Position numbers and translations under genes: made by a program
From: a virus
Strand: one strand, 5' to 3'
Virus record (IMG/VR): IMGVR_UViG_3300032893_003193
Span: 1 to 46,660 of that record
DNA length: 46,660 bases
The notes under the pieces: generated by a model
What the model was told of the DNA's origin: nothing
The model's database searches: none
What the model saw: only the letters and a program-made list of their open reading frames with translations
Shown: positions 2,912 through 46,096 of the stretch, in pieces
Numbering within the stretch: position 1 is the first letter of the stretch
Layout: each line of letters opens with the position of its first letter

Positions 2912-4957
2912 ATGACGGATCAGCTAACCTGGAGTAACGAACCCTTGTTACAGCCTGAGACATTCGTGTCTGAGGCTGAGCAGTTCTACTTGCAATCCGA
3001 AAAGGAAAGGCAAGTAGTACGGGAAGTTTTCTTTAAGTTTCGCTGGTCCCAGGATATGCGTAACAGGGCGTACGAACTCTTCGATGGCCGCACCATTATT
3101 GAATATATTAACGATTCAGTTTCTCGTTTCATCACTAATATCTTTGAACGAGACGGAATCCAAGACTGGCAAGCTCGTGTCCATGACCCACTGACAAGAA
3201 ACAAAGTCTTGGCTGTTCTTGGTAAGGTTGTGAGTGTTCTTCCAACAGCCAACTTCACCTCTCGTGGTGATGATGATATTCGTAAGGGTTCGATTCTTTC
3301 TGACCTTTATGACTACTCAGAAGACATAGATAACTACGAGGAGTTTATGATTAACTTCCTCCTGGAAGCAATTGTAAAGGGTACTGCTGTAGGCTACGAG
3401 GGTGTTGAATACCACGAAAACAAACTCCGTGATGTCGAGGGTTTTGGCGACTCTTTAACTGTTAAGGAAAGTATTCGTAAGGAAACAAAACTCTTCGCAG
3501 AACTTGTACCGTTGGAAGAGTTCTATCCAGCACACGTAGCTATTAGAACTATTAAAGACATGCCTTTCTGTTTCTGGAGGCATGAGATTTCATATGACGA
3601 ATTCAAAACACGTTGGTTCAATGCCGGATATGAACGGGTTAAATATGTTAAACCCCATGCTCCGCTTTCACAGTGGCGCGAGCAACGTCCCTTCTACCTC
3701 GACTACATTTCTACAACAGTACAGCCCGGAAATGTGGAAATCATACGATACTACGATAAGATCAATGATACCTACGTTATCCTTGCCAATGGTGTTTGGA
3801 TCAACCCAGTAGGAGAAACGGAAGAGGTTTCCCCGATGCCTTGGAACCACAAAGAACTTCCCTTCTTTGATATTAAGTTTGACTACTTGGTGAACTGGTT
3901 CTACGGCAAGTCTCTGCCAGATCGACTCCAATCACTCCAAGACGTTGTAGACGTTTTGACAAACATGCTCCTTGACCAGAGCTTCCTTACTATCTTCCCG
4001 CCCCTCATTACATCTGGAAATGATGCGATTGAAGATGACTACCTCCGTCCTGGTCGCCGCACGCCAATTGATACCCAAGGTCTACCCTTGAATCAGACAT
4101 ACGCGACACTCGACCTCGGCACTCCTCAGGGTTGGCACCAGTTTATCCTACAGTACGTTCGTCAAATTTCAGAAGACTCTTCGGTTGACCAAGTTACTCA
4201 GGGTCAAGCGGGTGTTGGTGGGCGTACTACTGCTACGGAAATCAATGCCGCCCAGGGTGGTGCTGAGTCTATGCTTGGTCTATTTGGACGCCAAATCTTC
4301 TTTGGTATTAAGCGCAAGGCACTCTTGCGTGCTAAGAACATTCTCCAATTCTGGACTGATCCGAAGTCACCTCGTGTTACTGGTGTCCTGGGAGACAACG
4401 GAAACGAGGAACTTGCAGACGCATTTGATCTCTACAAGATCGACAATACTACCCTTTCCCATGGAGTTCGTGGAACCCGTATTATTGCGATGTTTAAGGA
4501 TCAAAGCCAAATGCCTGATGCTAATAAGCTCAAGGTAAAGGGTGCTGTTAAGGAGGCCCTAAATGGACGCCCTGTAGAGTATATGGCTATTAATGCAGAG
4601 TATATCCGCAACCTAGACTTCAATGTAAAGGTGGTTATGGATGAATCTAAGTCTGCTACCAAGGATATTGAGAAAGCAATGCAACTTGAAAAGGTTCGTG
4701 TGTATATGTCCTTCTTCCCACAACAGGTGGATGTCAACGAACTCGCCGCTGAAACGGCTGAGAAAATGGGCGATGACCCATCTAAGATTCTGAAACAGCA
4801 AGTATTCCAACCGCCACAGCAGGGTCCTGAATCACAAGGACCAATGAGTACGGAACCACAATCTAACGTTGCACAGAATATGGCTAATGCCCCACAAAAC
4901 GGTATTGCGGGTGGTATGAGACAACTCGCACAACTGAGTGGAAGTATGACTGGATAA
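2912..4957 (+). CDS. Portal protein
   Basis: A 681-residue protein in the portal position, between terminase and scaffold. It has the mixed helical and strand pattern of large podovirus-type portals, with a long central section, a helical stem region and a Gln/Pro/Met-rich disordered tail after about residue 625. It would form the dodecameric ring at the capsid vertex that nucleates assembly and serves as the DNA channel and tail docking site. The assignment rests on order and size more than on a single motif. The ATG lies 14 bases after a perfect TATAAT with no Shine-Dalgarno, so translation from a near-leaderless message is likely. Confidence 0.85.
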   Translation: MTDQLTWSNEPLLQPETFVSEAEQFYLQSEKERQVVREVFFKFRWSQDMRNRAYELFDGRTIIEYINDSVSRFITNIFERDGIQDWQARVHDPLTRNKVLAVLGKVVSVLPTANFTSRGDDDIRKGSILSDLYDYSEDIDNYEEFMINFLLEAIVKGTAVGYEGVEYHENKLRDVEGFGDSLTVKESIRKETKLFAELVPLEEFYPAHVAIRTIKDMPFCFWRHEISYDEFKTRWFNAGYERVKYVKPHAPLSQWREQRPFYLDYISTTVQPGNVEIIRYYDKINDTYVILANGVWINPVGETEEVSPMPWNHKELPFFDIKFDYLVNWFYGKSLPDRLQSLQDVVDVLTNMLLDQSFLTIFPPLITSGNDAIEDDYLRPGRRTPIDTQGLPLNQTYATLDLGTPQGWHQFILQYVRQISEDSSVDQVTQGQAGVGGRTTATEINAAQGGAESMLGLFGRQIFFGIKRKALLRAKNILQFWTDPKSPRVTGVLGDNGNEELADAFDLYKIDNTTLSHGVRGTRIIAMFKDQSQMPDANKLKVKGAVKEALNGRPVEYMAINAEYIRNLDFNVKVVMDESKSATKDIEKAMQLEKVRVYMSFFPQQVDVNELAAETAEKMGDDPSKILKQQVFQPPQQGPESQGPMSTEPQSNVAQNMANAPQNGIAGGMRQLAQLSGSMTG

Positions 4958-4958
4958 T

Positions 4959-5261
4959 ATGTGGAAACCATTCGTTAAAGTAGTTGATCGTGAAATGGAT
5001 GAAATTGAGTTGTCATCCAAGCTCGCTAACCTACTCGGTGATATTGAATCAGTTGAAATAGTTACCGAGGCACAAAAGCAAATCTTTAAAGATCTTGCTG
5101 GTGTGGATGGATTACTCGACTATCTCCGCGACACCCTAGTCAATGACATGAAGCGGTACTTCGGTGCCCAATCAGAAAAAGAACGCGATATTATCCGAGG
5201 TGGTTTCTCTCGTACGGCTTACATCCGAAGCCGTATTCTTGACAGTATAAAGAATTCATAG
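4959..5261 (+). CDS. Hypothetical protein downstream of portal
   Basis: A 100-residue acidic helical protein starting one base after the portal stop. Residues 75-97 contain an EKERDIIRGGFSRT segment followed by basic residues, a pattern seen in small proteins that follow portals in several phages, though I cannot name the family. Its last codon runs into the spacer of the promoter that serves the scaffold. A head-assembly accessory role is a positional guess. Confidence 0.7.
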   Translation: MWKPFVKVVDREMDEIELSSKLANLLGDIESVEIVTEAQKQIFKDLAGVDGLLDYLRDTLVNDMKRYFGAQSEKERDIIRGGFSRTAYIRSRILDSIKNS

Positions 5262-5267
5262 TATAAT
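5239..5267 (+). promoter_or_regulatory. Consensus sigma70 promoter for the capsid genes
   Basis: A perfect TTGACA at 5239-5244, a 17-base spacer and a perfect TATAAT at 5262-5267. It overlaps the end of the upstream gene. It should be among the strongest promoters in the window and drives scaffold, decoration and major capsid genes, which need high expression. Transcription should start near 5274 and give a 5' leader of about 145 bases. Confidence 0.88.
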
Positions 5268-5273
5268 ATAAGC

Positions 5274-5417
5274 AGATTTGGTGTTGCGTGTGCTGTTCGG
5301 CCCTGCCCCGGACAGCACAGGCCACATCAAAGGCCACCCATAAAGGTCGTAGAGGGACTCAACCCTCCCTGGGCAGAACCAGGATAAAAAGTGTTAGTAG
5401 TAAAAGGGACAAAATTT
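5274..5417 (+). promoter_or_regulatory. Structured 5' leader of the capsid mRNA
   Basis: The leader carries a strong hairpin at 5290-5318: 11 pairs including one G-U, with a 7-base CCCTGCC loop. Two smaller stems follow, GAGGG/CCCTC and CCTGG/CCAGG, near 5353-5384. No credible reading frame fills it. It may stabilise the abundant capsid message or control its translation. No riboswitch class is recognised. Confidence 0.5.
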
Positions 5418-6044
5418 ATGGACAAAAACCCAGAAATTTCCAATCCAGGAAATGGGGGGGAAGACAAAGTTGAACTCTCTAAAGCAGAGTACGACAAATT
5501 GGTTGAGGAGCGAGCTAAAGGGCTCGAAGCTCAAGCAAGAATGAAGGATGAAATTACGCAGCTTCGTGAGAAGATTCGTACTGAAAATCCTTCCCTACAG
5601 CCAGAGGATATTACCAAAGCTGTAGAAGCAGAATTCAAGAAGCGAGAAGCTGACCAGGTGAAGAAAAACATCGAGGAAGCTACTCAGGATTTCTTGAGTG
5701 AACACCAGGAGTTCTCGAAAGAGAATGACCCGGATGGTTCTAAATTAGCATCTTTCCAGAAAGCTCTTGGACAGTTTAGTTTGTCTGGTGTTAAGACCAA
5801 AGAAGACTATACCCAAGTGCTGAATAATGCAATGCGTCTCACCCCTGAGGTGAGCCAACCTGTCACCCCTATCGTTTCAACTCCTCGCACTCCTTCAATC
5901 CCTGGTGGGAAACCATCAGCACGATTGTCGGACAAAGAGATTAAGTTGGTTCAACGAAGTTTTGGCGGCGATGTGGAGGCATATCTCAAGGTAAAGACCA
6001 AACGACCTGAATACGTCGAGGGGCTTCTCGACTATATCAGGTAG
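5418..6044 (+). CDS. Capsid scaffolding protein (putative)
   Basis: A 208-residue, highly charged protein placed between portal and capsid genes. Residues 15-110 form long amphipathic helices, probably coiled coil. A Pro/Thr linker follows at about 145-165, then a compact basic C-terminal helix region. This is the layout of phage scaffolds, whose C-terminus touches the coat protein. It would guide procapsid assembly and then leave. I chose ATG 5418, which has an AAGGG-like sequence about 10 bases upstream, over an upstream GTG at 5391 that would add nine codons. Confidence 0.75.
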   Translation: MDKNPEISNPGNGGEDKVELSKAEYDKLVEERAKGLEAQARMKDEITQLREKIRTENPSLQPEDITKAVEAEFKKREADQVKKNIEEATQDFLSEHQEFSKENDPDGSKLASFQKALGQFSLSGVKTKEDYTQVLNNAMRLTPEVSQPVTPIVSTPRTPSIPGGKPSARLSDKEIKLVQRSFGGDVEAYLKVKTKRPEYVEGLLDYIR

Positions 6045-36142: not shown

Positions 36143-36190
36143 TTACCAACTGTTGGTTGTACCTTGTTGCATAGTTGTACCTTCTTGCAT
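36143..36190 (-). CDS. Repeat-encoded 15-residue leader peptide
   Basis: A micro-ORF (MQEGTTMQQGTTNSW) ends two bases before the next gene. Its first 12 residues are encoded by two tandem copies of an 18-base repeat (36156-36191). A leader peptide that couples or attenuates translation of the dNTPase-like gene is possible. Confidence 0.35.
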   Translation of the reverse strand: MQEGTTMQQGTTNSW

Positions 36191-36191
36191 G
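36156..36191. repeat. Tandem 18-base direct repeat
   Basis: GTTGTACCTTGTTGCATA is followed at once by GTTGTACCTTCTTGCATG, 16 of 18 bases equal. It lies upstream of the dNTPase-like gene and encodes the micro-ORF above. It might also be a regulator binding site. Confidence 0.7.
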
Positions 36192-36279
36192 ATAAATTAA
36201 TTAACTAGTAATCGACCTAACCAGGAAACAGTAGAAAACTCATTGAAATTTTTTAAATATTATTCACAGTCTTACTATT

Positions 36280-36309
36280 CTTTACTTAGACTAGTTATAC
36301 TAAGTAAAG
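36280..36309. promoter_or_regulatory. Perfect inverted repeat, operator candidate
   Basis: CTTTACTTAG at 36280-36289 and CTAAGTAAAG at 36300-36309 are perfect complements around a 10-base spacer. The spacer ends in TATA and with the second arm gives TATACT (36296-36301), a possible rightward -10. It fits a dimeric repressor site or a hairpin at the edge of the structured RNA region. Confidence 0.55.
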
Positions 36310-36590
36310 AGACTCGCAAGCTAACGCTTGCTCGTTTAGGGAATGGCAACATTCCCTAGAACGGTCCTTACATTACCCCCTTTCCCCCATGAGAGTCATG
36401 AGAGAAAGGAAGATCGGGGTATTCCCCAGTGACGGCCTTGCTGGAACAAAATCGCAACCAGCTAGCGTATACCAGATCGGCTTCTTTTACCCCTGCCGAA
36501 TTATCCCTTCGGGGAGAGTTATTAACCCTATTCACAGCCCAGGCTCCGGCGGGGATCACTTAGGCCGTGAATACGATTAAGAACTTATGA
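36310..36590 (+). ncRNA. Candidate structured RNA with three stable tetraloops
   Basis: No gene fits this roughly 280-base stretch, which looks richer in G+C than its flanks. Read rightward it has GCAAGC-TAAC-GCTTGC (about 36317-36332), TAGGGAATG-GCAA-CATTCCCTA (36337-36358) and TCCC-TTCG-GGGA (near 36508), that is UMAC, GNRA and UUCG tetraloops, which are favoured only on this strand. ACGGCCT at 36432-36438 pairs with AGGCCGT at 36562-36568 and would close a multibranch domain. No family is recognised. A leftward promoter at 36596-36624 fires across it in the other sense, so the strand is not certain. Confidence 0.5.
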
Positions 36591-36595
36591 ACGTA

Positions 36596-36624
36596 ATTAT
36601 ATACCAGAACGATTCTAAAGTCAA
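36596..36624 (-). promoter_or_regulatory. Leftward sigma70 promoter
   Basis: TTGACT (36624-36619), 17-base spacer, TATAAT (36601-36596). Transcription would begin near 36590 and run through the structured region into the dNTPase-like gene. Confidence 0.75.
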
Positions 36625-36644
36625 GGTGAAGATACCATTATAAA

Positions 36645-37094
36645 CTAAAACTGCGGGGATGTCAAATGTGGACACTGGCCGTAAAAAGATTTCGCCATGT
36701 TACAGTTATGACAAAGAACTTGAAATCCCGTAGGCCAGTTATTTTTTCTTAAGTAAGTGTAAAAACCAATACCCCCCTTTGGTTCTCCGTTTCTCTTGGC
36801 CGTTGCACCGTTATTATTAATATGATCTATTGCAAGGAACTCGTGGTGTCTTTCACCACAACAGGCGCACTTTATATCACCACCAGAGTAGTGGTTCAAT
36901 ACCTCGATTCTAAGGTTTTTACGTGCTTTGTTGCGAATTTTTTTATAACGTTCTGGATTTTTCTCTATCCAAATACGATTTAGCTCCCTTGAGCGTATTT
37001 TATTTCTCTGGTGGTAATCTTTTCTGTAGCATTTTCTACACATACCCCGTACAACACTTTGAAATGAATCTTTACAAACGCAGCACTCTTTCAT
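36645..37094 (-). CDS. HNH endonuclease with zinc motifs
   Basis: A 149-residue protein. CCVCKDSF and CRKCYRKDY form an N-terminal zinc site (5-25). The HNH domain has CACCGERHHEFLAIDHI, then NNNGATAKR and CHNCN, the layout of phage free-standing homing endonucleases. It cuts DNA, probably to spread its own gene. It sits between the primase genes and a structured RNA locus. I chose ATG 37094 over a GTG two codons upstream. Confidence 0.85.
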   Translation of the reverse strand: MKECCVCKDSFQSVVRGMCRKCYRKDYHQRNKIRSRELNRIWIEKNPERYKKIRNKARKNLRIEVLNHYSGGDIKCACCGERHHEFLAIDHINNNGATAKRNGEPKGGIGFYTYLRKNNWPTGFQVLCHNCNMAKSFYGQCPHLTSPQF

Positions 37095-37108
37095 TGTCAC
37101 ATATTATA

Positions 37109-37366
37109 TCATATGAAACCATTATCGTCAAGATATTTTAAAGCCTCTTTAAAAGTCATACCCATAGCAATTAGGAAATCCAAAGCATTCTGGCCATTTT
37201 TAGAGCAACCGAAGCAATGAAATCCCCCGTCAGGGTAAATAACACAGCTCGGGGTCCTTTCATTGTGAAAAGGACACCGAATGTGCTGTCTACGAAAAGA
37301 TGTTAGTCCTAATACTTGCTGGACCTTAATCTCTCTAGCCCGTTTAACTACCAATTCCCACTCCAT
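37109..37366 (-). CDS. CHC2-type primase zinc-binding protein
   Basis: An 85-residue protein that is only the DnaG-type zinc domain: RCPFHNERTPSC (Cys31, His34) and FHCFGCSKNG (Cys51, Cys54). In bacterial primases and T7 gp4 this domain is N-terminal and reads the priming site on single-stranded DNA. Here it is a separate gene downstream of the TOPRIM-helicase gene, overlapping it by 19 bases. It must act in trans, or a frameshift could fuse it to the helicase C-terminus. Confidence 0.88.
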   Translation of the reverse strand: MEWELVVKRAREIKVQQVLGLTSFRRQHIRCPFHNERTPSCVIYPDGGFHCFGCSKNGQNALDFLIAMGMTFKEALKYLDDNGFI

Positions 37367-38832
37367 ATTTCGTCGTCTTTTTCTGGTACAGTAGCCTGGT
37401 TATCGTCAAATAATCCTGTAGAGGGGTCGAAATTAAAGATTCTCTCAGTCATGGGGCCCTTATTTTTCTGAACGTCAACCAAAATTCCCCCTGTACTATT
37501 CTCTGAAAGGAGTACGACAACCTCCGGGTCTTGGTAAAGACTCGATGAACCCTTGAGATCCTCGATATTAGGCTTCCTAGAACGCGCTATAAAGGCCCCA
37601 GGAGCGTCTAATTTGCGTAGGTGTGATACAACTATCAAGATGAGTCCAAATTCCTCTGCAACGTGTTTTAAAGCCTTTAGGGTGTCACTAATAGCCGACT
37701 CTCGGTTCGTTCCAGCGTTACGTACCAAATAGTCTAGGTGGTCGATAATTACGACCTTGATATTGAGAAACCGAGCTGACTTTTCAATAACCTGTGGATT
37801 ATCCACAATATCGGGTAGTGCAAAGTAAATAGGTAGGTCTGCAACCTTTCTAATCAACCCGTCCCAATCCTCGTTAGAGTACCTTGACATGTCTTCCTCG
37901 GTATTTTCGGACACAATATGCAACAGGCGTTCCCCCACACTCTCAATTCCACGCTCAAACGGTTCGACCAACACACCAATACCTTGTGAAGCAATATCTT
38001 TAGCAATATTCATTACGTAGGCGGTTTTCCCTACATTTTGACGGCCTGAAATCATAGCCATCCATCCGTTTTTAAACTTGACTTCGGGGATGTAACGAGT
38101 TTGTAAGTCAAATTTTTCCCCAGATCGCAACGTATTAATGATGTCGCCAAGGGTTTTAAACTCTCCCACAAGGAAGGTTTTAGCCTTTTGGATCAATTCA
38201 ATAATCTCCTTACGTCCATTTCCAGCCAAAAGGAAGTCATTAGCGTCCTTTTGCGGCCACTGGACACAGAAACACTTATCAGACCCTAGACGTTCCGCGA
38301 GCTTTTTAGCAGACTTCTGCCCAGGCTCATCATTATCATACGCGATCCAAATTCTAGGGATGGCAGAAACAAACTCCAACCACGGACCGAATGAATCCTT
38401 ACCGCTGGCTGGAGAGATTACATTCGTAACCCCCATTTGCCACACGGCCATGCAGTCAAACTCACCCTCGACAATTAAAATTCCTTTCTTTTTGATTCCT
38501 TCTTGCAACCCCTCGTCATTAAACATCCAAGTTTCTGCACCAGACTCGCTACCGTATTTACCCCTATCGCTATCAAGGAACCTATACTTGATGTTGATAA
38601 GTTGCCCCGACTTGTAAACAGGTATAGATATTGCGGATCGCTCACTGTCGTATCCAAGACCAAAGTGTTGTATTGTGGTGTCTGTAAGTCCTCGATCATG
38701 TAAATATTTCTGTGCTACTTCCGATCCTTTGAGTGCTTCTTGAAACTGAACTACCTTTGAAAATTCAGGGCGTTTGTATTCCACTCCCACAGTCTCACGC
38801 AGAGACTTGATTTTTTCTGTAATATTATTCAT
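37348..38832 (-). CDS. TOPRIM primase-DnaB-type helicase (Twinkle/gp4-like)
   Basis: A 494-residue replication protein. The TOPRIM domain has VEGEFD at 121-126 and AYDND at 164-168. The RecA-type helicase has Walker A GRQNVGKT at 263-270, Walker B VVIIDHLD at 360-367 and the sensor IVVSHLRK. It unwinds DNA ahead of the fork and could make primers with the zinc protein next to it. It lacks its own N-terminal zinc domain, so it matches the middle and end of T7 gp4. Confidence 0.92.
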   Translation of the reverse strand: MNNITEKIKSLRETVGVEYKRPEFSKVVQFQEALKGSEVAQKYLHDRGLTDTTIQHFGLGYDSERSAISIPVYKSGQLINIKYRFLDSDRGKYGSESGAETWMFNDEGLQEGIKKKGILIVEGEFDCMAVWQMGVTNVISPASGKDSFGPWLEFVSAIPRIWIAYDNDEPGQKSAKKLAERLGSDKCFCVQWPQKDANDFLLAGNGRKEIIELIQKAKTFLVGEFKTLGDIINTLRSGEKFDLQTRYIPEVKFKNGWMAMISGRQNVGKTAYVMNIAKDIASQGIGVLVEPFERGIESVGERLLHIVSENTEEDMSRYSNEDWDGLIRKVADLPIYFALPDIVDNPQVIEKSARFLNIKVVIIDHLDYLVRNAGTNRESAISDTLKALKHVAEEFGLILIVVSHLRKLDAPGAFIARSRKPNIEDLKGSSSLYQDPEVVVLLSENSTGGILVDVQKNKGPMTERIFNFDPSTGLFDDNQATVPEKDDEIWSGNW

Positions 38833-39041: not shown

Positions 39042-39803
39042 TTAGTGCGTGAGTCCAATAATTGCGTTTGCGTATGCTTCCAGGCCCAAATTAGACAGTC
39101 CCGGTGCAGTACCAACCTCCAACACGTAGCAATTTCCCTCTCTATCTCGCAAAATGTCCACAGCACCAAAATCAAGACCGAGTGCAGAAACCGCCTGTTT
39201 CGCCAATTCTTCGACACTCGGACGACGTGTGACAGCCCTAATAAACTCCCACCCCAACGCAGCAGACCTAATCATATCGTCAGACTGTGCATTAGATACG
39301 ATCCTGCCGTCAATACGCTTCACCTTTTTAGCGTAGTCAATAATTTCACCACGGAAAACATGCACCCGATACTCTCGTGAACGTGGTATGAACTTAGTAT
39401 AAACTGGAACATCGGGCAAGGCTTCACCCTGTCTCATAATAGTGATACCCTCACCCGAGTGTCCTTCAAGGACCGCGCGGCAAACTATCCTGTTCCATCC
39501 TTGTGTTTCCGATTTTGTGGTAGTAAAGGGCACTGTTTGCACATGGTGATCTCGTAGGCATACAAGTGTACGTAGCTTGTTCGCAGATATACGAACAGCA
39601 GCGGGGCTATTAATAATTCCTTCGTAATTCCACTTCGGGGATTTACTACTACCCCAATTTATAACAATGTCATGACGGCGACGAACAAAAGCACCATCAG
39701 GACGAACGCGTAAGATTTTGCCTTCAAATTTAGTTTGGAGAGTGTCTTGCAGATCACGGCAAGACTGCGACCCGATTTTGTATGGATATAAAATGATCCG
39801 CAT
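39042..39803 (-). CDS. ATP-grasp ligase (RimK/phage COOH-NH2 ligase type)
   Basis: A 253-residue enzyme. Visible parts of the ATP-grasp fold: the Gly-rich loop GHSGEGI at 114-120, EYRVHVF at 144-150, LGLDFGAVD at 208-216 and metal-binding VLEVGTAPGLSN at 227-238. Such enzymes activate a carboxylate with ATP and join it to an amine, often adding amino acids to peptides or proteins. Short ATP-grasp proteins of this kind occur in phages with amidoligase genes, as here across the divergent promoter. Substrates are unknown. Confidence 0.88.
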   Translation of the reverse strand: MRIILYPYKIGSQSCRDLQDTLQTKFEGKILRVRPDGAFVRRRHDIVINWGSSKSPKWNYEGIINSPAAVRISANKLRTLVCLRDHHVQTVPFTTTKSETQGWNRIVCRAVLEGHSGEGITIMRQGEALPDVPVYTKFIPRSREYRVHVFRGEIIDYAKKVKRIDGRIVSNAQSDDMIRSAALGWEFIRAVTRRPSVEELAKQAVSALGLDFGAVDILRDREGNCYVLEVGTAPGLSNLGLEAYANAIIGLTH

Positions 39804-40014: not shown

Positions 40015-40410
40015 TTATCCTAACATAGTAAATAATTGAATTTCCCAATTGTCAACATACGACTTTAATAGTTTAGGATCGTCCCACACCTTCTCTCCGA
40101 GCGTTTTCTTGATGTACGCAGCGTAGTATTTAGCCCGGTGTTGTATCCAGTAAAAGGGAAATCCCTTTTCGTATACTGTCATAAACTCTTTCTCATCGGT
40201 GCCGTTGTGCCCCCGCCACTCAAAATGACAAAAGATAATGGCTATGATTTGATCCTCGGTGTATATCTCCAACATTTTATTGATAGAGCTTTTCGCACGA
40301 TCTGTTTCAGGAAATTCAAAATCGGTCCCAAAAAATAATTTATGGAACGTAGAATAAACCTCAAAAACTTGTTCATGGAACTCAGTTTTTTTGCTTTTCC
40401 TAGATGACAT
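40015..40410 (-). CDS. Hypothetical protein, first gene of the leftward block
   Basis: A 131-residue mixed protein with many aromatic residues (HFEWRGHN, FYWIQHRAKYYAAYIK). I do not recognise it. ATG 40410 (MSSRKSKK) is preferred; ATG 40437 would add nine codons but lie four bases from the tRNA-like element. Being first in the block downstream of the long RNA region it may be an early gene. Confidence 0.6.
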   Translation of the reverse strand: MSSRKSKKTEFHEQVFEVYSTFHKLFFGTDFEFPETDRAKSSINKMLEIYTEDQIIAIIFCHFEWRGHNGTDEKEFMTVYEKGFPFYWIQHRAKYYAAYIKKTLGEKVWDDPKLLKSYVDNWEIQLFTMLG

Positions 40411-40440
40411 AATTTGTTTATCGGTCACAACTAGCATAGA

Positions 40441-40592
40441 AAGGCTTTAGGGAATCGAACCCTAAATATAGAGTTGCCTACGTTACGTACTGCGTAACCT
40501 CAGCGGGTTTGTTAAGTCCCCTCTACATTTCAGGGGGTTAAGTACATCAGTGTTTTAAGCCAACACACGTAACCCCCGTACCAGAAAGCCTC
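40441..40592 (-). ncRNA. tRNA-like element with 7-bp acceptor stem and T-arm
   Basis: Read leftward, GAGGCTT (40592-40586) pairs with AAGCCTT (40447-40441), and directly inside the 3' strand is a canonical T-arm, TAGGG-TTCGATT-CCCTA. Between them are about 120 bases with GGGGGTTA/TAACCCCC enclosing a GTGTT/AACAC hairpin, then CCCCT/AGGGG and GTTACG/CGTAAC. There is no normal D-arm or anticodon arm and no encoded CCA. This acceptor plus T-arm layout recalls the tRNA half of tmRNA, but 152 bases is too short for a usual tmRNA and no convincing tag frame is seen. Confidence 0.45.
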
Positions 40593-41403
40593 ATATCTCC
40601 GTACCCCACCAACCCGCATGTGTGGAATAAGCCGATCAGTGGGGGGTAGGGAGATGGGTGCAGCAAGAGGCTGCAATTTGGTCCTGCCTAAGCCCAGATG
40701 GACAATGGAGGACGTGGTGTATCAGACCACTAAGTGCTTCGAGGCACCGTAAGCCACCGCAGACGCATGTATGGCGTGGGGCAGCGAGACACCAGGGAGT
40801 CGCAAAGCTGGAAACTGAGCACATGCTATAAACGAGATCCCCAGCCAAGACGTTTTGGGCCATTATGGAGTTGATTAAGTAGCACCACCATGAGCCGCAA
40901 TAAATATGAATAGATGCGGAATTGATCGCTACACCCAAGTAGTAGGCAGGGTGGTGGTGCCGAAATATGCGACGCGATGAATAACGCCCACCACCCCAAA
41001 AGTGATGAAAAAACAGCACCACCACCCCACCCACTACATGAAAGAACTATGAAAGAACACGCGCAAGAACCACTTTTTAACGGCAGCCCTACACTTAGAG
41101 GCGTTAGGGAGTCGAACCCATAGGGATATAAATCCCGGCACTACTTCGGAAATCTAGGATCGACTATTTACCTTGTGGTCCGCCTGAGTTTTACGGGTTT
41201 CAGATTGTGCTCGCAGTCCTTGCGAACCACTAGGAGCAATCATTATTAACCGGATTAACGAAGGATCAGAGCAAGGGAACATCAATACCACATCCGACAG
41301 TACGGCAGATTGTCCCAAATCTGCAAAACCACCTCACACGGGAACCTTGCGGGTCCCCATGCCCAGCGCAGTGGAGAGTCGTGCAACCCCGCTGCTACCA
41401 GAC
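40593..41403 (-). ncRNA. Large structured non-coding RNA region
   Basis: About 800 bases without a credible gene. A consensus leftward promoter at 41410-41438 would transcribe it. Hairpins include GCAGATT/AATCTGC (41304-41323), a stem capped by a GCAA tetraloop on the leftward strand (41340-41357), GGGAT/ATCCC (near 41123-41136), GCAGC/GCTGC (40659-40673), GTGGT/ACCAC (40714-40730) and a 12-base match between GGGTGGTGGTGC (40949-40960) and GCACCACCACCC (41016-41027). Phages often place very large ornate RNAs (GOLLD, ROOL) beside tRNA genes; this may be one of them or a new type. I cannot assign a family. Confidence 0.5.
41098..41122 (-). other. Second T-arm/acceptor-like element
   Basis: Leftward reading gives TATGGG-TTCGACT-CCCTA followed by ACGCCTC. 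This closely parallels the 3' end of the element at 40441 (TAGGG-TTCGATT-CCCTA, AAGCCTT). A possible 5' partner AGGCG lies at about 41181-41185, and a variable-arm-like GGGAT/ATCCC is between, but D and anticodon arms do not form. Confidence 0.3.
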
Positions 41404-41409
41404 ACGAGA

Positions 41410-41438
41410 AGTATAGCAACACGGTACTTTGATGTCAA
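41410..41438 (-). promoter_or_regulatory. Leftward consensus promoter for the RNA region
   Basis: TTGACA (41438-41433), 17-base spacer, TATACT (41415-41410). It shares DNA with the -35 of the rightward promoter at 41429-41457, so the two face away from each other and may compete. Confidence 0.78.
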
Positions 41439-41457
41439 CATTTTCTCGTGGTGTAAT
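41429..41457 (+). promoter_or_regulatory. Rightward promoter 1 for the amidoligase operon
   Basis: TTGATG (41429-41434), 17-base spacer, TGTAAT (41452-41457). Its -10 lies in the left arm of the inverted repeat at 41449-41485, so a bound repressor would block it. Confidence 0.6.
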
Positions 41458-41485
41458 ATGAAAAACCATATTTCGCATTACACCA
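41449..41485. promoter_or_regulatory. Inverted-repeat operator candidate
   Basis: TGGTGTAAT (41449-41457) and ATTACACCA (41477-41485) are perfect complements with a 19-base spacer. The centre-to-centre distance of 28 bases is near three helical turns, as for sites bound by a dimer or pair of dimers. Confidence 0.55.
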
Positions 41486-41495
41486 TAAATTTTTA

Positions 41496-41524
41496 TTGTA
41501 TTCACCTTTTTAATTTGTTAATAT
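41496..41524 (+). promoter_or_regulatory. Rightward promoter 2 for the amidoligase operon
   Basis: TTGTAT (41496-41501), 17-base spacer, TAATAT (41519-41524). It would start an mRNA about 20 bases before ATG 41552. Confidence 0.5.
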
Positions 41525-41551
41525 TATCTCCATAAACATTTATCTATTTTT

Positions 41552-43186
41552 ATGCCAGGAGCACCAGAACAAGCACCAGAAAATGCAATAAATCCAGTAA
41601 ACCCATGGGGACAGAACCATTTTGGGCTTGTACACGGTGCTGCCGAAATGGTTTGGCGGATGCAACGAGAAGCGATTTTGCAAAACGTGGAAATAATACA
41701 ACCCGCTGAGCTAGCAGTAAGACAGACACAAGTCACTCCACAAGCTACAAAACTAAAAGAACCGACCGTGTATCGCTCGAACGAAAAAGGAGAATATGTG
41801 GTGTCCACACGTCCTTTCGGTGTGGAGTACGAAATCAATTTTTCTTGGAGTAACGCAGATGAACTGCGACGCATGATCGGTGCGGAGTACAACATCGTGA
41901 GTGATGGTTCAGTACGAAATGGCTTGGAGGTAGTAAGCCCGGTACTCCAGGGGCACGCCGGAGAACAACAGGTATTCAAAACATGTGCATCTATTAAGAA
42001 ATTAAAAGGTGCCACTGACGAGTCATGCGGTTTGCACGTCCACCTGGATGCAGCAGACTTCTACAAACCCACTGTAGCAAAGTCATCCAGCCTTATTAAT
42101 ACCTACATTAAGTATAAAGAAAAGAAAAGCCACGACAAGGTTTTGTGGATTGTCCACAGCTCTGTTATTAAATTCCTCATCAAAAGAGGAACCACAGAAG
42201 ACAGGCATCTTGCCGATTGCATGACCGGACGCTCACCATTTAGCGCAAGCAGCACCGACCGACTCATTAAGTACATGAATGACGCTACGTTTTTCCCGCA
42301 CCGCGTTCTCTTTGTGAACCACAAAGGAAAAATGGACCAACCACAAACATGCAAAATCTTGGCACATGGAGTACTAGGCCGAAGAAATAGGATTTTTAAA
42401 GAAATGCCCGTAGACAAAAACGGAGACTCAAAACTCGACGAGTGGAACGGACGACCCGCAATAAACCCTATCAACGGATACGTGTATATTGACCCCACAC
42501 GTGCAGATAAAATGCGTGTAATTATCCTTCCATTGGTAAACGAAGACACGAAACAACTCAGTAGATTAAAGCGTCTTGCCGCATTCTACATTGCATTTGA
42601 TGATGTGATTGCATCAATGCTTCCATCGGACCGCAGAGCGAATGACTTTGCGCGACGTGTATCACAGCGTGCGTCGCTGGAAGACATTAATTCATGCAGA
42701 TCGGTGCGGGACTTTATGCGCCTCTGGTTCCACCTACATGACGACGACACCATTGAAACTGCACAACACAATCGTCGCCACCACTCACGATATTGTGGTT
42801 TGAACCTCCACGCCTTGCTAAAACATGGTACTGTGGAAATTAGGTACCTCGGAGGCACAATCGACCCACACGAAATCATACAGTGGGTATACTTACACCA
42901 AACAATCTTAGACATTGCAGCCGACACGAGTGACCCACGATTCAACATGGAACTTCTGTCTAAGGCGTCAATGATTATTCGCCCAGATTACAAGGCGGAT
43001 GTATTCTTTAAAAAGCTGAAACTCCGTCCCGAAACAGAGCAATACTTCCGTGAACTCATCGGGAGACTGAAAGAGGACGACAGAACGCTGGTAGACGAGC
43101 TAATTGAAGAAGAGGCGCGAGTAGTACAGGACGACTACGAAGAACGGATGTTAGTATTAGAAGATGATGGTGACTTTTTAAACTAA
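41552..43186 (+). CDS. Amidoligase (COOH-NH2 ligase, glutamine-synthetase-like fold)
   Basis: A 544-residue enzyme of the Amidoligase_2 type. Motifs: FGVEYE at 89-94 (metal-binding glutamates), DGS at 118-120, LEVVSP at 125-130, CGLHVHLD at 159-166, RYCGLNLH at 413-420 and TVEIRYLGG at 427-435. The family is related to glutamine synthetase and gamma-glutamylcysteine ligase and joins a carboxylate to an amine with ATP. A Pro- and Gln-rich N-terminal stretch of about 85 residues is extra. It heads an operon with an amidotransferase 2 bases downstream. The real substrate is unknown; peptidoglycan or peptide modification has been predicted for such phage genes. Confidence 0.88.
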   Translation: MPGAPEQAPENAINPVNPWGQNHFGLVHGAAEMVWRMQREAILQNVEIIQPAELAVRQTQVTPQATKLKEPTVYRSNEKGEYVVSTRPFGVEYEINFSWSNADELRRMIGAEYNIVSDGSVRNGLEVVSPVLQGHAGEQQVFKTCASIKKLKGATDESCGLHVHLDAADFYKPTVAKSSSLINTYIKYKEKKSHDKVLWIVHSSVIKFLIKRGTTEDRHLADCMTGRSPFSASSTDRLIKYMNDATFFPHRVLFVNHKGKMDQPQTCKILAHGVLGRRNRIFKEMPVDKNGDSKLDEWNGRPAINPINGYVYIDPTRADKMRVIILPLVNEDTKQLSRLKRLAAFYIAFDDVIASMLPSDRRANDFARRVSQRASLEDINSCRSVRDFMRLWFHLHDDDTIETAQHNRRHHSRYCGLNLHALLKHGTVEIRYLGGTIDPHEIIQWVYLHQTILDIAADTSDPRFNMELLSKASMIIRPDYKADVFFKKLKLRPETEQYFRELIGRLKEDDRTLVDELIEEEARVVQDDYEERMLVLEDDGDFLN

Positions 43187-43188
43187 TT

Positions 43189-44550
43189 ATGTGTGGAATT
43201 TTATTTGTCAGTGCACGAGAGGGGAGAAACGCCGTAAAGCCAACTTTAAGGCGGTGGCGTAAGCAAAAACACCGAGGCTCCGAGGGTTTCGGATACGTTA
43301 CTATCGACCAAAATAATAAAATTGGCGAAGTAATGCGTGCAACCACCGGGACCGAAATAGAAAAGATGCTGCGACAAGAAACCGCAAAGCACATCATGTT
43401 CCACCACCGAATGCCGACATCCACGCCTAACTATGTGGAAGCGACACACCCCCTTGTTGTTCAGTGGAATAAGCTCGACCACGATTATTACATCGTACAC
43501 AACGGGGTTATTTCCAACTGGCAAGAAACATTCGAGAAGTACAAAACAGAGGGATATGTATTTCGTACCGAATTTCACCAGTACAAAGCAGAGGAATTTG
43601 TAAACTCTAAAAAGGTTTACTCCGAGGACCCGGAAATAAAAATCAATGACAGCGAATCATTTGCTATTGATCTTGCAATGTTCCTTGATGGTAAAAAGGA
43701 CGCAATCGAAAGCGTGGGGAGTATTGCGTTTATTGCTATCCAAACAGACAAAAACAGTTACGTAAAGAAAATATTTTGGGGCCATAACTACCGCAACCCA
43801 CTACTCCTTGAACAAGACAATACTGTGTTCGCCCTTAGATCAATGGGTGGTAGCTCTAAGGACGTAAAAACAGATGTTCTATTTAGTTTGGAATGGGACA
43901 CCGGAGAAATCATTGAAAAGTCAATAAACATCGGATACGGTTTTGCAGTTGATAAAACCAAAGGATCGAATGATTGGGAGCGATACTGGCCCAAGGAAAA
44001 AACCACAGGATTTAACACGGCAAAAACAAAAGAAATCGACCAGGGGATTACTAGGTTTCTCGACCCAAACTATCCCATGCTTCCCGATGGTATGGTGGCC
44101 TCTCCCATAAAGACTAAGGACATGTGGGAACGGGAACGCGAACAGCCAGCAGAAGACTATTCCGACGATTACGATTACGATTTTTTAGAAGAAAGAGGGG
44201 CCGACGAACCCTCCATTATAGAAATATTCGGAGGCGACGACGACGCACAAAAAAAACTCATGCAAGAGATCGTGGAAATGAGCGAGTATAAGCAGGGCGA
44301 CCCCGACCACATCCGCACACTACGCTCCGAACTCCGCAATGCACTATACGACTACGCACGATCACAAAACGAGTACCACGACGCTATACTATTGATTAAG
44401 GAGTCTAAGGGGGACAACTACGACCACCGAGAAAAAGACGCCGCGTGGGGGCTTTTAGAGGCTGCTAGGGCCGATGTAGCAGACTGTCGAAAGAACGTAG
44501 ACGCAACCGCAGCAGAACTAACAGCGTGGATTAGTAGCGAGAAATGGTAA
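43189..44550 (+). CDS. Class II glutamine amidotransferase with acidic extension
   Basis: A 453-residue protein. The N-terminal Ntn-hydrolase domain has Cys2 (MCGI) as nucleophile once Met is removed, KHRGSEGFGY at 27-36, HHRMPTST at 72-79, HNGVISN at 104-110 and NDSES at 153-157, like the glutaminase domain of GlmS and asparagine synthetase. It frees ammonia from glutamine. After residue 285 a region rich in Asp, Glu and Tyr, then a coiled-coil helix pair, makes a 170-residue extension I do not recognise, possibly the dock for a ligase. It follows the amidoligase by 2 bases and probably feeds it ammonia. Confidence 0.88.
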   Translation: MCGILFVSAREGRNAVKPTLRRWRKQKHRGSEGFGYVTIDQNNKIGEVMRATTGTEIEKMLRQETAKHIMFHHRMPTSTPNYVEATHPLVVQWNKLDHDYYIVHNGVISNWQETFEKYKTEGYVFRTEFHQYKAEEFVNSKKVYSEDPEIKINDSESFAIDLAMFLDGKKDAIESVGSIAFIAIQTDKNSYVKKIFWGHNYRNPLLLEQDNTVFALRSMGGSSKDVKTDVLFSLEWDTGEIIEKSINIGYGFAVDKTKGSNDWERYWPKEKTTGFNTAKTKEIDQGITRFLDPNYPMLPDGMVASPIKTKDMWEREREQPAEDYSDDYDYDFLEERGADEPSIIEIFGGDDDAQKKLMQEIVEMSEYKQGDPDHIRTLRSELRNALYDYARSQNEYHDAILLIKESKGDNYDHREKDAAWGLLEAARADVADCRKNVDATAAELTAWISSEKW

Positions 44551-44621
44551 ATCATTGCTGTCAAGTACAACTTCATGGTATATTTATTCATGGATTTAAT
44601 GTGAAGATTTAAAAATAAATT

Positions 44622-44663
44622 ATGTGTACAAATATTAAGGTTTGTAAGGTGTGCGGAAAATAA
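44622..44663 (+). CDS. Micro-ORF ahead of the second ligase
   Basis: A 13-codon frame (MCTNIKVCKVCGK) ending one base before the next gene (TAA-T-ATG). It looks like the first half of a zinc ribbon, cut off after CKVCGK. It may serve reinitiation, or be the remnant of a zinc-ribbon or HNH gene. Confidence 0.35.
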   Translation: MCTNIKVCKVCGK

Positions 44664-44664
44664 T

Positions 44665-45726
44665 ATGCGAGAACTATCCACGCAGCAAGACTTGAAAATG
44701 GGATGCGACCCCGAGTTTTTCATCACAAAAAACGGTAAAGTAATCGGGGCCGAGCATGTACTACCGAAAGAGGGACTAATCGGACCAAGGGGTAAATTCA
44801 TCATTGATGGTGTGCAAATCGAAATGAACCCCGCGCCATCGTACTGTCGTGGATTGTTGGGAAACTATATCGGTGACTGTTTTCGCCTTCTTGAAAGACA
44901 CCTGGAACTCGGTGGTTATAAGAAAGAGGGTGTTAGCGTCAGTTTTGATAATACAGTAAAGATCACGCGCACTAATTTTGAAAAATTGAGCAATAACTGC
45001 AAGCAATTCGGATGCAGCGTAAGTAATAACGTGGGACCAGACGGACAAATCATGCGCTCATATATCGACGTAGACCCCACAGTATATCGTTCACGCTCCG
45101 GTGGTGGACATATCCATTTCGGTGATTATGAATACACCAACCGCCCCGGACAAGTTAAGAAAGCACTAAAAAATGTACAAGTAATGGTTCCTGTGCTTGA
45201 TATTATTCTCGGCAACACAATGGTCCTCATTGATCGCGACCGAGGAAACAGGGAGCGACGCAAAACATACGGACGTGCTGGTGAGTTTCGACTACCTTCA
45301 TACGGTTTGGAGTACCGCACACCTTCTAACTTTTGGTTAAAATCTCCTGTACTATTTTCTCTCGCGTTTGGCCTTGCACGACTCGCTGTTCAGCTTGTTG
45401 TAGAAAGTGACCGTGAAAATAACTACGTCAAAGAACTCCTATCGCGTGTGGACATGGAGGATATACACGACGCAATCAACCGTAACTCAGCACTAAAAGC
45501 ACGCAGAAACTTTGACAAGATACTAGACTTGCTCATGGATATTATCCCCGCCGCTACCGTCACTACATTTTATCCATTCAGTGCATACAACATCGAACAA
45601 TTTAATAAGTTTGTTATCGGGGTGCAAAAGGAAAAAATCAAATTCACTAAACCATTTGAGACGTGGCTACGAATGGACAACGCACACAACCACGGAATTA
45701 ACGACTACCTAAACAGAATGAAGTAA
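44665..45726 (+). CDS. phiEco32-like COOH-NH2 ligase type 2
   Basis: A 353-residue enzyme. GCDPEFF at 13-19, DGVQIEMNP at 48-56, GGGHIHFG at 146-153, YGRAGEFR at 202-209 and GLEYRTPS at 214-221 are the marks of the phiEco32-like COOH-NH2 ligase-type 2 family, of the glutamine-synthetase-like fold. It differs from the first amidoligase, so two carboxylates or two steps are likely. A gamma-glutamyl-cyclotransferase-like gene follows by 4 bases. Family sure, substrate unknown. Confidence 0.92.
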   Translation: MRELSTQQDLKMGCDPEFFITKNGKVIGAEHVLPKEGLIGPRGKFIIDGVQIEMNPAPSYCRGLLGNYIGDCFRLLERHLELGGYKKEGVSVSFDNTVKITRTNFEKLSNNCKQFGCSVSNNVGPDGQIMRSYIDVDPTVYRSRSGGGHIHFGDYEYTNRPGQVKKALKNVQVMVPVLDIILGNTMVLIDRDRGNRERRKTYGRAGEFRLPSYGLEYRTPSNFWLKSPVLFSLAFGLARLAVQLVVESDRENNYVKELLSRVDMEDIHDAINRNSALKARRNFDKILDLLMDIIPAATVTTFYPFSAYNIEQFNKFVIGVQKEKIKFTKPFETWLRMDNAHNHGINDYLNRMK

Positions 45727-45730
45727 TAAT

Positions 45731-46096
45731 ATGGTTATCATCGGCGTTTACGGATCACTGAAAGAAGGATTTTATAACCACGACCCCTATATGAAGGGTG
45801 CACGAAAGATCATGGACACTAAGATTTTCGGTGCCATGGAGCTAATAAACGGCTCATATCCTATGCTTTTTGAGGACGGGCGTTATCCACAGTTTGATAG
45901 AATCCACGACATAGAGATATACGAAATTGATGATACAATGTTTGAGGCGATAGAGTATATGGAGTTGTTATCGGGGTACAAAATGGCACTCATGGACGTG
46001 GAAGGGATGGACGTTCACGTATTCCTCGCGCCACAAGGCCGCGCTTTCAACGAAAAAAACTTTATCGAATCTTATTCAAAAGAATTATTTAACTAA
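45731..46096 (+). CDS. Gamma-glutamyl cyclotransferase-like (AIG2/GGCT) protein
   Basis: A 121-residue protein of the GGCT fold. VYGSLKEGFYN at 6-16 forms the substrate loop and the TMFEAIEYMEL segment (69-79) holds the catalytic glutamate in the usual place. These enzymes release 5-oxoproline from gamma-glutamyl amines. Next to two ligases and a glutaminase it may trim or edit a gamma-glutamyl amide, or protect against unwanted products. Confidence 0.85.
   Translation: MVIIGVYGSLKEGFYNHDPYMKGARKIMDTKIFGAMELINGSYPMLFEDGRYPQFDRIHDIEIYEIDDTMFEAIEYMELLSGYKMALMDVEGMDVHVFLAPQGRAFNEKNFIESYSKELFN

What the first reader, a model, noticed from the sequence alone, without database searches (positions are those of the whole stretch)
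40441..41403. About 1 kb of structured non-coding RNA between divergent promoters
No gene fits on either strand. A TTGACA-17-TATACT promoter fires leftward into it. It holds many hairpins, a leftward GNRA-capped stem and two tRNA-like T-arms. Its size and tRNA-like neighbours recall the giant ornate RNAs of phages (GOLLD, ROOL), but I cannot match one. It could be a new large RNA.
Basis: partly seen in the sequence, partly recalled or inferred. Interest (0 to 1): 0.8.

Follow-up and report, generated by a model that had tools for sequence, protein, structure and literature searches.

The report
Orphan phage RNA with tRNA-like ends
A one-kilobase stretch of a phage genome makes no protein and probably makes a long folded RNA ending in a tRNA-shaped piece just before the DNA-copying genes; it resembles known giant phage RNAs in kind but belongs to no known family, and its job is unproven.

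Summary
The ~1-kb gap is real. No ORF in it looks coding. A strong leftward sigma70 promoter (TTGACA-17-TATACT, 11/12) opens it, and it ends just before a gene of the replication operon. The two T-arms are more than T-arms. The leftmost closes a 152-nt tRNA-like domain (40592-40441) with a 7-bp acceptor stem and a perfect T-arm; 4 of 20,000 shuffles do as well. The other (41186-41097) resembles a class-II tRNA with five acceptor pairs. Their last 21 nt are 19/21 identical. Folding energy is low (z -4.1) but not exceptional for this genome (-2.1 +/- 2.2). No Rfam family matches; GOLLD, ROOL and tmRNA models are negative. One distant relative (IMG/VR 3300037094_000013, locus L044) has the same inverted gene order, with a ~1.1-kb region without convincing ORFs at the same place, an 11/12 promoter pointing the same way, a strong fold (z -8) and a tRNA-like gene near its 3' end. 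Sequence homology between the two RNAs is not established, and no covariation test was possible. Best reading: an orphan large phage RNA and leader of the replication operon, with a tRNA-like 3' domain acting as a processing signal. Transcription is unproven. Main rival: a regulatory or origin spacer holding decayed tRNAs.

The parts
41410..41438 (-). sigma70-type promoter TTGACA-17-TATACT (11/12, TG before the -10); predicted start of the RNA near 41403
40441..41403 (-). predicted non-coding transcript, about 963 nt, GC 51% against 45% for the window
   Evidence: transcription itself not shown
41337..41361 (-). 10-bp hairpin CATGGGGACC / GGTTCCCGTG, loop CGCAA
41213..41230 (-).
   Evidence: pair probability 0.98
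41097..41186 (-). tRNA-like element 1: class-II shape with AGGCG/CGCCT acceptor pairs, GAC/GUC D-arm, GGGAU/AUCCC variable arm and T-arm GGGUUCGACUCCC; degenerate anticodon arm
   Evidence: ARAGORN at a 50% threshold only
40939..41037 (-). 24-bp hairpin GTAGTGGGTGGGGTGGTGGTGCTG / CGGCACCACCACCCTGCCTACTAC with two hairpins inside
40681..40713 (-). hairpin with CATTGTCCATNNGGGCTT, shared (16/18) at a colinear place with L044 5482-5499, where the outer stem differs but still pairs
40441..40592 (-). tRNA-like element 2 (3' domain): 7-bp acceptor GAGGCUU/AAGCCUU, T-arm UAGGG-UUCGAUU-CCCUA, GG-bearing D-like loop, anticodon domain replaced by about 115 nt with helices of its own
   Evidence: ARAGORN intron mode: 1 of 300 shuffles; 4 of 20,000 shuffles; only instance in the window
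40015..40437 (-). downstream gene, 140 aa; matches the C-terminal part of the clade's 264-272 aa replication-initiator / helicase-loader proteins and lacks their winged-helix half
41552..43186 (+). divergent neighbour: amidoligase

Best explanation
The region encodes an orphan large structured phage RNA of about 0.96 kb. A strong host-type sigma70 promoter at 41438-41410 starts it, and it reads leftward toward the replication operon (helicase-loader-like protein, R2K-type protein, primase-helicase). Its last 152 nt fold into a tRNA-like domain (acceptor stem plus T-arm) that ends a few nt before the first possible start codon (40437) of the next gene. Most likely mechanism: host tRNA-processing enzymes (RNase P at about 40592, RNase Z or E at about 40441) recognise this domain and cut there, freeing the ~810-nt folded body from the downstream mRNA. 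The body then acts as a free structured RNA, in the manner of the other abundant large phage RNAs. Shown by sequence: non-coding status, promoter, tRNA-like domain, syntenic counterpart. Inferred: transcription, cleavage, and the body's independent function.
For: Non-coding by a clade-trained model. 11/12 promoter in the right place and orientation. tRNA-like 3' domain far beyond chance. A second tRNA-like copy inside the RNA, 19/21 identical over T-arm and acceptor 3' strand, whose acceptor keeps pairing through one T-A to G-C change (and sequence). Raised GC in both RNAs. A relative with the same gene order has a ~1.1-kb region without convincing ORFs, an 11/12 promoter, z -8 and a tRNA-like gene near the 3' end, although neighbouring proteins are only 27-50% identical. 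Abundant ~0.6-1.2 kb ORF-less RNAs occur in other phages: ICP1 (PMC7567579) and phage K (PMC9241854).
Against: No expression data. Fold z is ordinary for this genome. RNA-to-RNA homology with L044 is weak: sequence-only alignment z 0.5, sequence plus structure z 2.1 (2 of 100 shuffles reach it), and a local search does not rank L044 on top. No third homologue in IMG/VR, INPHARED, PLSDB or GTDB. Neither tRNA-like element ends in CCA and neither is found by ARAGORN at default settings. No convincing terminator separates the RNA from the operon.
Confidence: 0.5

Rival explanations
1. Spacer or regulatory DNA between two divergent operons that has collected and is losing tRNA genes. The promoter simply drives the replication operon through a long leader with no function of its own.
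For: Other members of the clade carry tRNA genes in large gaps without convincing ORFs, and these gaps share almost no sequence. Folding energy in the window is not exceptional. Element 1 has a damaged anticodon arm.
Against: Element 2 keeps acceptor and T-arm perfect while its anticodon domain is wholly replaced, which is not what random decay gives. The phages are otherwise compact. Size, promoter, orientation and a 3' tRNA-like element recur in L044. No IMG/VR contig carries the 20-nt T-arm/acceptor sequence, so it is not a recent copy of a known phage tRNA.
Confidence: 0.33
2. Replication origin whose transcript primes DNA synthesis (compare ColE1 RNA II or T4 R-loop origins, from general knowledge). 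The RNA is made next to the helicase loader and primase and is kept for its pairing with DNA.
For: The downstream gene is homologous to part of phage replication initiators / DnaD-like helicase loaders. It sits at the divergence of the two gene blocks, near the minimum of cumulative GC skew (about 42.5-43 kb).
Against: No iteron array beyond two 10-nt copies and no DnaA box in the region. Gene orientation explains part of the skew. The tRNA-like domain is not needed for priming.
Confidence: 0.14
3. A very divergent GOLLD or ROOL RNA.
For: Similar length, phage location and tRNA-like neighbours. In the literature GOLLD and ROOL lie near tRNA islands, and tRNAs can lie in the GOLLD linker (PMC12286853).
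Against: No match at E<=10 to either family in the window and at E<=5 in L044, and direct searches with RF02032 and RF03087 are negative in both (the ROOL search rang nowhere, so it is weak).
Confidence: 0.03

Closest known systems
GOLLD RNA (RF02032)
   Same: Phage-borne, about 0.8-1 kb, elaborate predicted fold, associated with tRNAs (PMC12286853)
   Different: No covariance-model match; here a tRNA-like domain forms the 3' end, whereas in GOLLD the 3' region is the conserved core
ROOL RNA (RF03087)
   Same: Phage large RNA near tRNAs (PMC12286853)
   Different: No covariance-model match; the model is 574 nt, this RNA about 960
ICP1 gp139-gp140 RNA and phage K lnc001/lnc002
   Same: About 0.6-1.2 kb ORF-less phage transcripts of unknown function (PMC7567579, PMC9241854)
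   Different: No DNA similarity to any INPHARED phage; expression is known there and not here
tmRNA (RF00023)
   Same: tRNA-like domain of acceptor stem, T-arm and GG-bearing D-like loop without a normal anticodon arm
   Different: No model match in the window and no tmRNA gene found by ARAGORN's tmRNA search

Membership tests
GOLLD | match to the Rfam covariance model RF02032 (conserved region) | tested here: not met
   none in window or L044
ROOL | match to the Rfam covariance model RF03087 | tested here: not met
   the control genomes did not ring either, so the negative is weaker
GOLLD | homo-oligomeric RNA nanocage | not testable with these tools
   needs cryo-EM
tmRNA | tmRNA covariance model or ARAGORN tmRNA match with tag peptide | tested here: not met
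tRNA | 7-bp acceptor stem and T-arm with TTCGA loop | tested here: met
   element 2:
tRNA | complete cloverleaf with 7-nt anticodon loop, default ARAGORN or Rfam score | tested here: not met
   (best tRNA-clan score 17.6 bits against a cut-off of 47)
large phage non-coding RNA (general kind) | ORF-less region of about 0.5-1.2 kb with its own promoter | tested here: met
large phage non-coding RNA (general kind) | abundant transcript during infection | not testable with these tools
   no RNA-seq for this phage
large phage non-coding RNA (general kind) | structure conserved by compensatory changes in homologues | tested here: inconclusive
   one syntenic counterpart, alignment z 2.1 at best; not detected locally

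The most novel reading that the evidence does not exclude
A new family of large phage RNAs that sit as the leader of the replication operon and are released by a tRNA-like domain at their 3' end, giving phages a tRNA-punctuated long RNA (a bacterial-virus parallel to the MALAT1 arrangement). The family evolves so fast that it is recognised by position and layout, not sequence.
Probability: 0.35. Interest if true: 0.7.

Novelty: new member of a known kind. Interest (0 to 1): 0.5.

Why it matters
Large phage RNAs such as GOLLD, ROOL and the ICP1 and phage K transcripts are abundant and unexplained. A further class fixed next to the replication genes, with a defined tRNA-like processing signal, would tie such an RNA to a genetic context and make function testable by simple deletion. 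It would also show that covariance-model libraries miss rapidly evolving large RNAs that synteny can reveal.

Tried and rejected
Exact 23-nt match in MT835684: lies inside a coding gene of an unrelated contig, chance. Motif ATTGTCCATNNGGGCTT in IMG/VR: 40 hits, almost all inside ORFs or without the outer stem; only L044 is relevant. So the shared motif is not a family signature in the collection. T-arm/acceptor 20-mer in IMG/VR: no hit. Conserved gap of G026/G031 (L190/L195, 58% over 1.6 kb): it holds a conserved ORF of about 105 aa, so not an RNA homologue. Local sequence-structure search of the window RNA against all the clade's gaps: nothing above background; a first version timed out. Folding energy as proof: rejected, because coding windows of this genome score as low or lower. 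132-aa ORF 41034-40636: rejected as coding. GTDB scan for relatives: one unrelated hit. Plasmids: none. A covariance model from the two-sequence motif alignment was not built, since a plain pattern search had already shown the motif to be unspecific.

Full report
WHAT IS THERE. The window is a 46,660-base virus record of a tailed phage with a T4-like terminase, ribonucleotide reductase, a GroEL-like protein and a primase-helicase. Between the leftward replication block (primase-helicase 37348-38832, R2K-type protein 39042-39803, 140-aa protein 40015-40437) and the rightward amidoligase block (41552 onward) lies a gap of 1.1 kb. A hexamer coding model trained on the clade's long ORFs finds no coding signal in it on either strand, while it scores the flanking genes strongly.

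PROMOTER. TTGACA-17-TATACT at 41438-41410 points leftward and predicts a start near 41403. The window has nine such sites of at least 11/12 where shuffled copies have 0.47, so this promoter type is probably in real use in this phage. No comparable rightward promoter was found in 41404-41551.

STRUCTURE. The minus strand folds to -361 kcal/mol, z -4.1; the plus strand reaches z -2.0. Forty-six windows of the same size elsewhere in the genome average -2.1 (sd 2.2) and several fall below -5. Folding energy therefore agrees with a structured RNA but does not prove one. High-probability elements include a GNRA-capped stem (41230-41213), a 10-bp hairpin (41361-41337) and a 24-bp hairpin (41037-40939).

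TRNA-LIKE ELEMENTS. The two T-arms are the strongest feature. Element 2 (40592-40441) has a 7-bp acceptor stem (GAGGCUU/AAGCCUU, one G-U pair), a perfect 5-bp T-stem with loop UUCGAUU, and a GG-bearing D-like loop, but about 115 nt with their own helices in place of the anticodon domain. ARAGORN in intron mode finds it, finds nothing else in the window, and finds such a gene in 1 of 300 shuffles. A direct test (5-bp T-arm with TTCGA plus 7-bp acceptor) is met in 4 of 20,000 shuffles and nowhere else in the window. Element 1 (41186-41097) looks like a degenerate class-II tRNA with five acceptor pairs. The last 21 nt of the two elements are 19/21 identical, and the acceptor stems of the two copies both pair although one pair differs (T-A in element 2, G-C in element 1). 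Neither ends in CCA and neither reaches default tRNA thresholds.

RELATIVES. Direct searches found no relative of the RNA. Terminase and primase searches brought in a clade of about 20 or more IMG/VR contigs. Most have the amidoligase genes in the opposite orientation, in line with the replication genes. One, IMGVR_UViG_3300037094_000013 (locus L044), has the window's inverted arrangement. There, between the amidoligase (start 3968) and the initiator gene (start 6046), a stretch of about 1.1 kb without convincing ORFs (4785-5908) starts at TTGACA-18-TAGAAT (4781-4810), folds with z -8 and carries a near-canonical tRNA-like gene at 5713-5784 (Rfam tRNA 28.4 bits against a cut-off of 29; ARAGORN). 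From predicted start to the end of the tRNA-like element is about 968 nt in L044 and 963 nt in the window. Predicted helices line up in order: a 22-24-bp hairpin about 340-370 nt from the start, then a hairpin with CATTGTCCATNNGGGCTT (16/18 shared) whose outer stem differs in sequence but pairs in both, then another hairpin, then a long stem. By my own estimate the shared word has a chance probability of roughly 0.002-0.02. A full-length alignment using sequence alone is not significant (z 0.5); with pairing probabilities it reaches z 2.1, 2 of 100 shuffles; a local search does not single L044 out. I call the two loci positional counterparts and probable, not proven, homologues.

FUNCTION. The gene just downstream belongs with phage replication initiators / DnaD-like helicase loaders in the relatives; in the window only the C-terminal part remains. 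The transcript therefore leads the replication operon. A tRNA-like domain directly before the first gene is, by established biochemistry of tRNA processing, a natural place for RNase P and RNase Z/E cleavage, which would release a free RNA body. That step, and transcription itself, are inferred. Large abundant ORF-less transcripts are known in ICP1 (about 800 nt, its most abundant transcript) and phage K (635 and 1154 nt from the table coordinates), so such an RNA would be a further example of a known kind.

FAMILY STATUS. It is not GOLLD, ROOL, tmRNA or any other Rfam family at any threshold tried. It works like, at most, a large phage RNA with a tRNA-like 3' domain; membership in a named family is not supported.

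Noticed in passing
window 36160-36640 (-): A second leftward non-coding structured stretch (about 470 nt, z -5.2, 0 of 100 shuffles) behind two tandem near-perfect sigma70 promoters (36665 with 12/12, 36624 with 11/12), directly downstream of an HNH/endonuclease-VII-like ORF (36645-37100). No Rfam, phage or clade match.
   Followed up: partly
window 40015-40437 (-): The helicase-loader-like protein lacks the winged-helix DNA-binding half that most relatives keep; G029 (L053 4439-4855) also has a short form, 43% identical.
   Followed up: partly
window 41552-46096 (+) against relatives: The amidoligase/GATase/COOH-NH2 ligase/GGACT operon is inverted relative to most of its clade; only L044 shares the window's orientation.
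   Followed up: partly
window 41449-41485: A 15-nt inverted repeat (87% complementary, 7-nt loop) between the leftward promoter and the amidoligase gene, perhaps an operator or terminator.
   Followed up: no
G025:C1:1422-1494 (L242): A 73-nt stretch scores 42 bits with the tmRNA model (cut-off 47) beside phage tRNA genes; possibly a tRNA or a tmRNA-like tRNA domain.
   Followed up: no
L043 14233-14304, L044 5713-5784, L161 7387-7481: Several phage tRNAs of this clade have four-base anticodons / 8-nt anticodon loops by ARAGORN.
   Followed up: no
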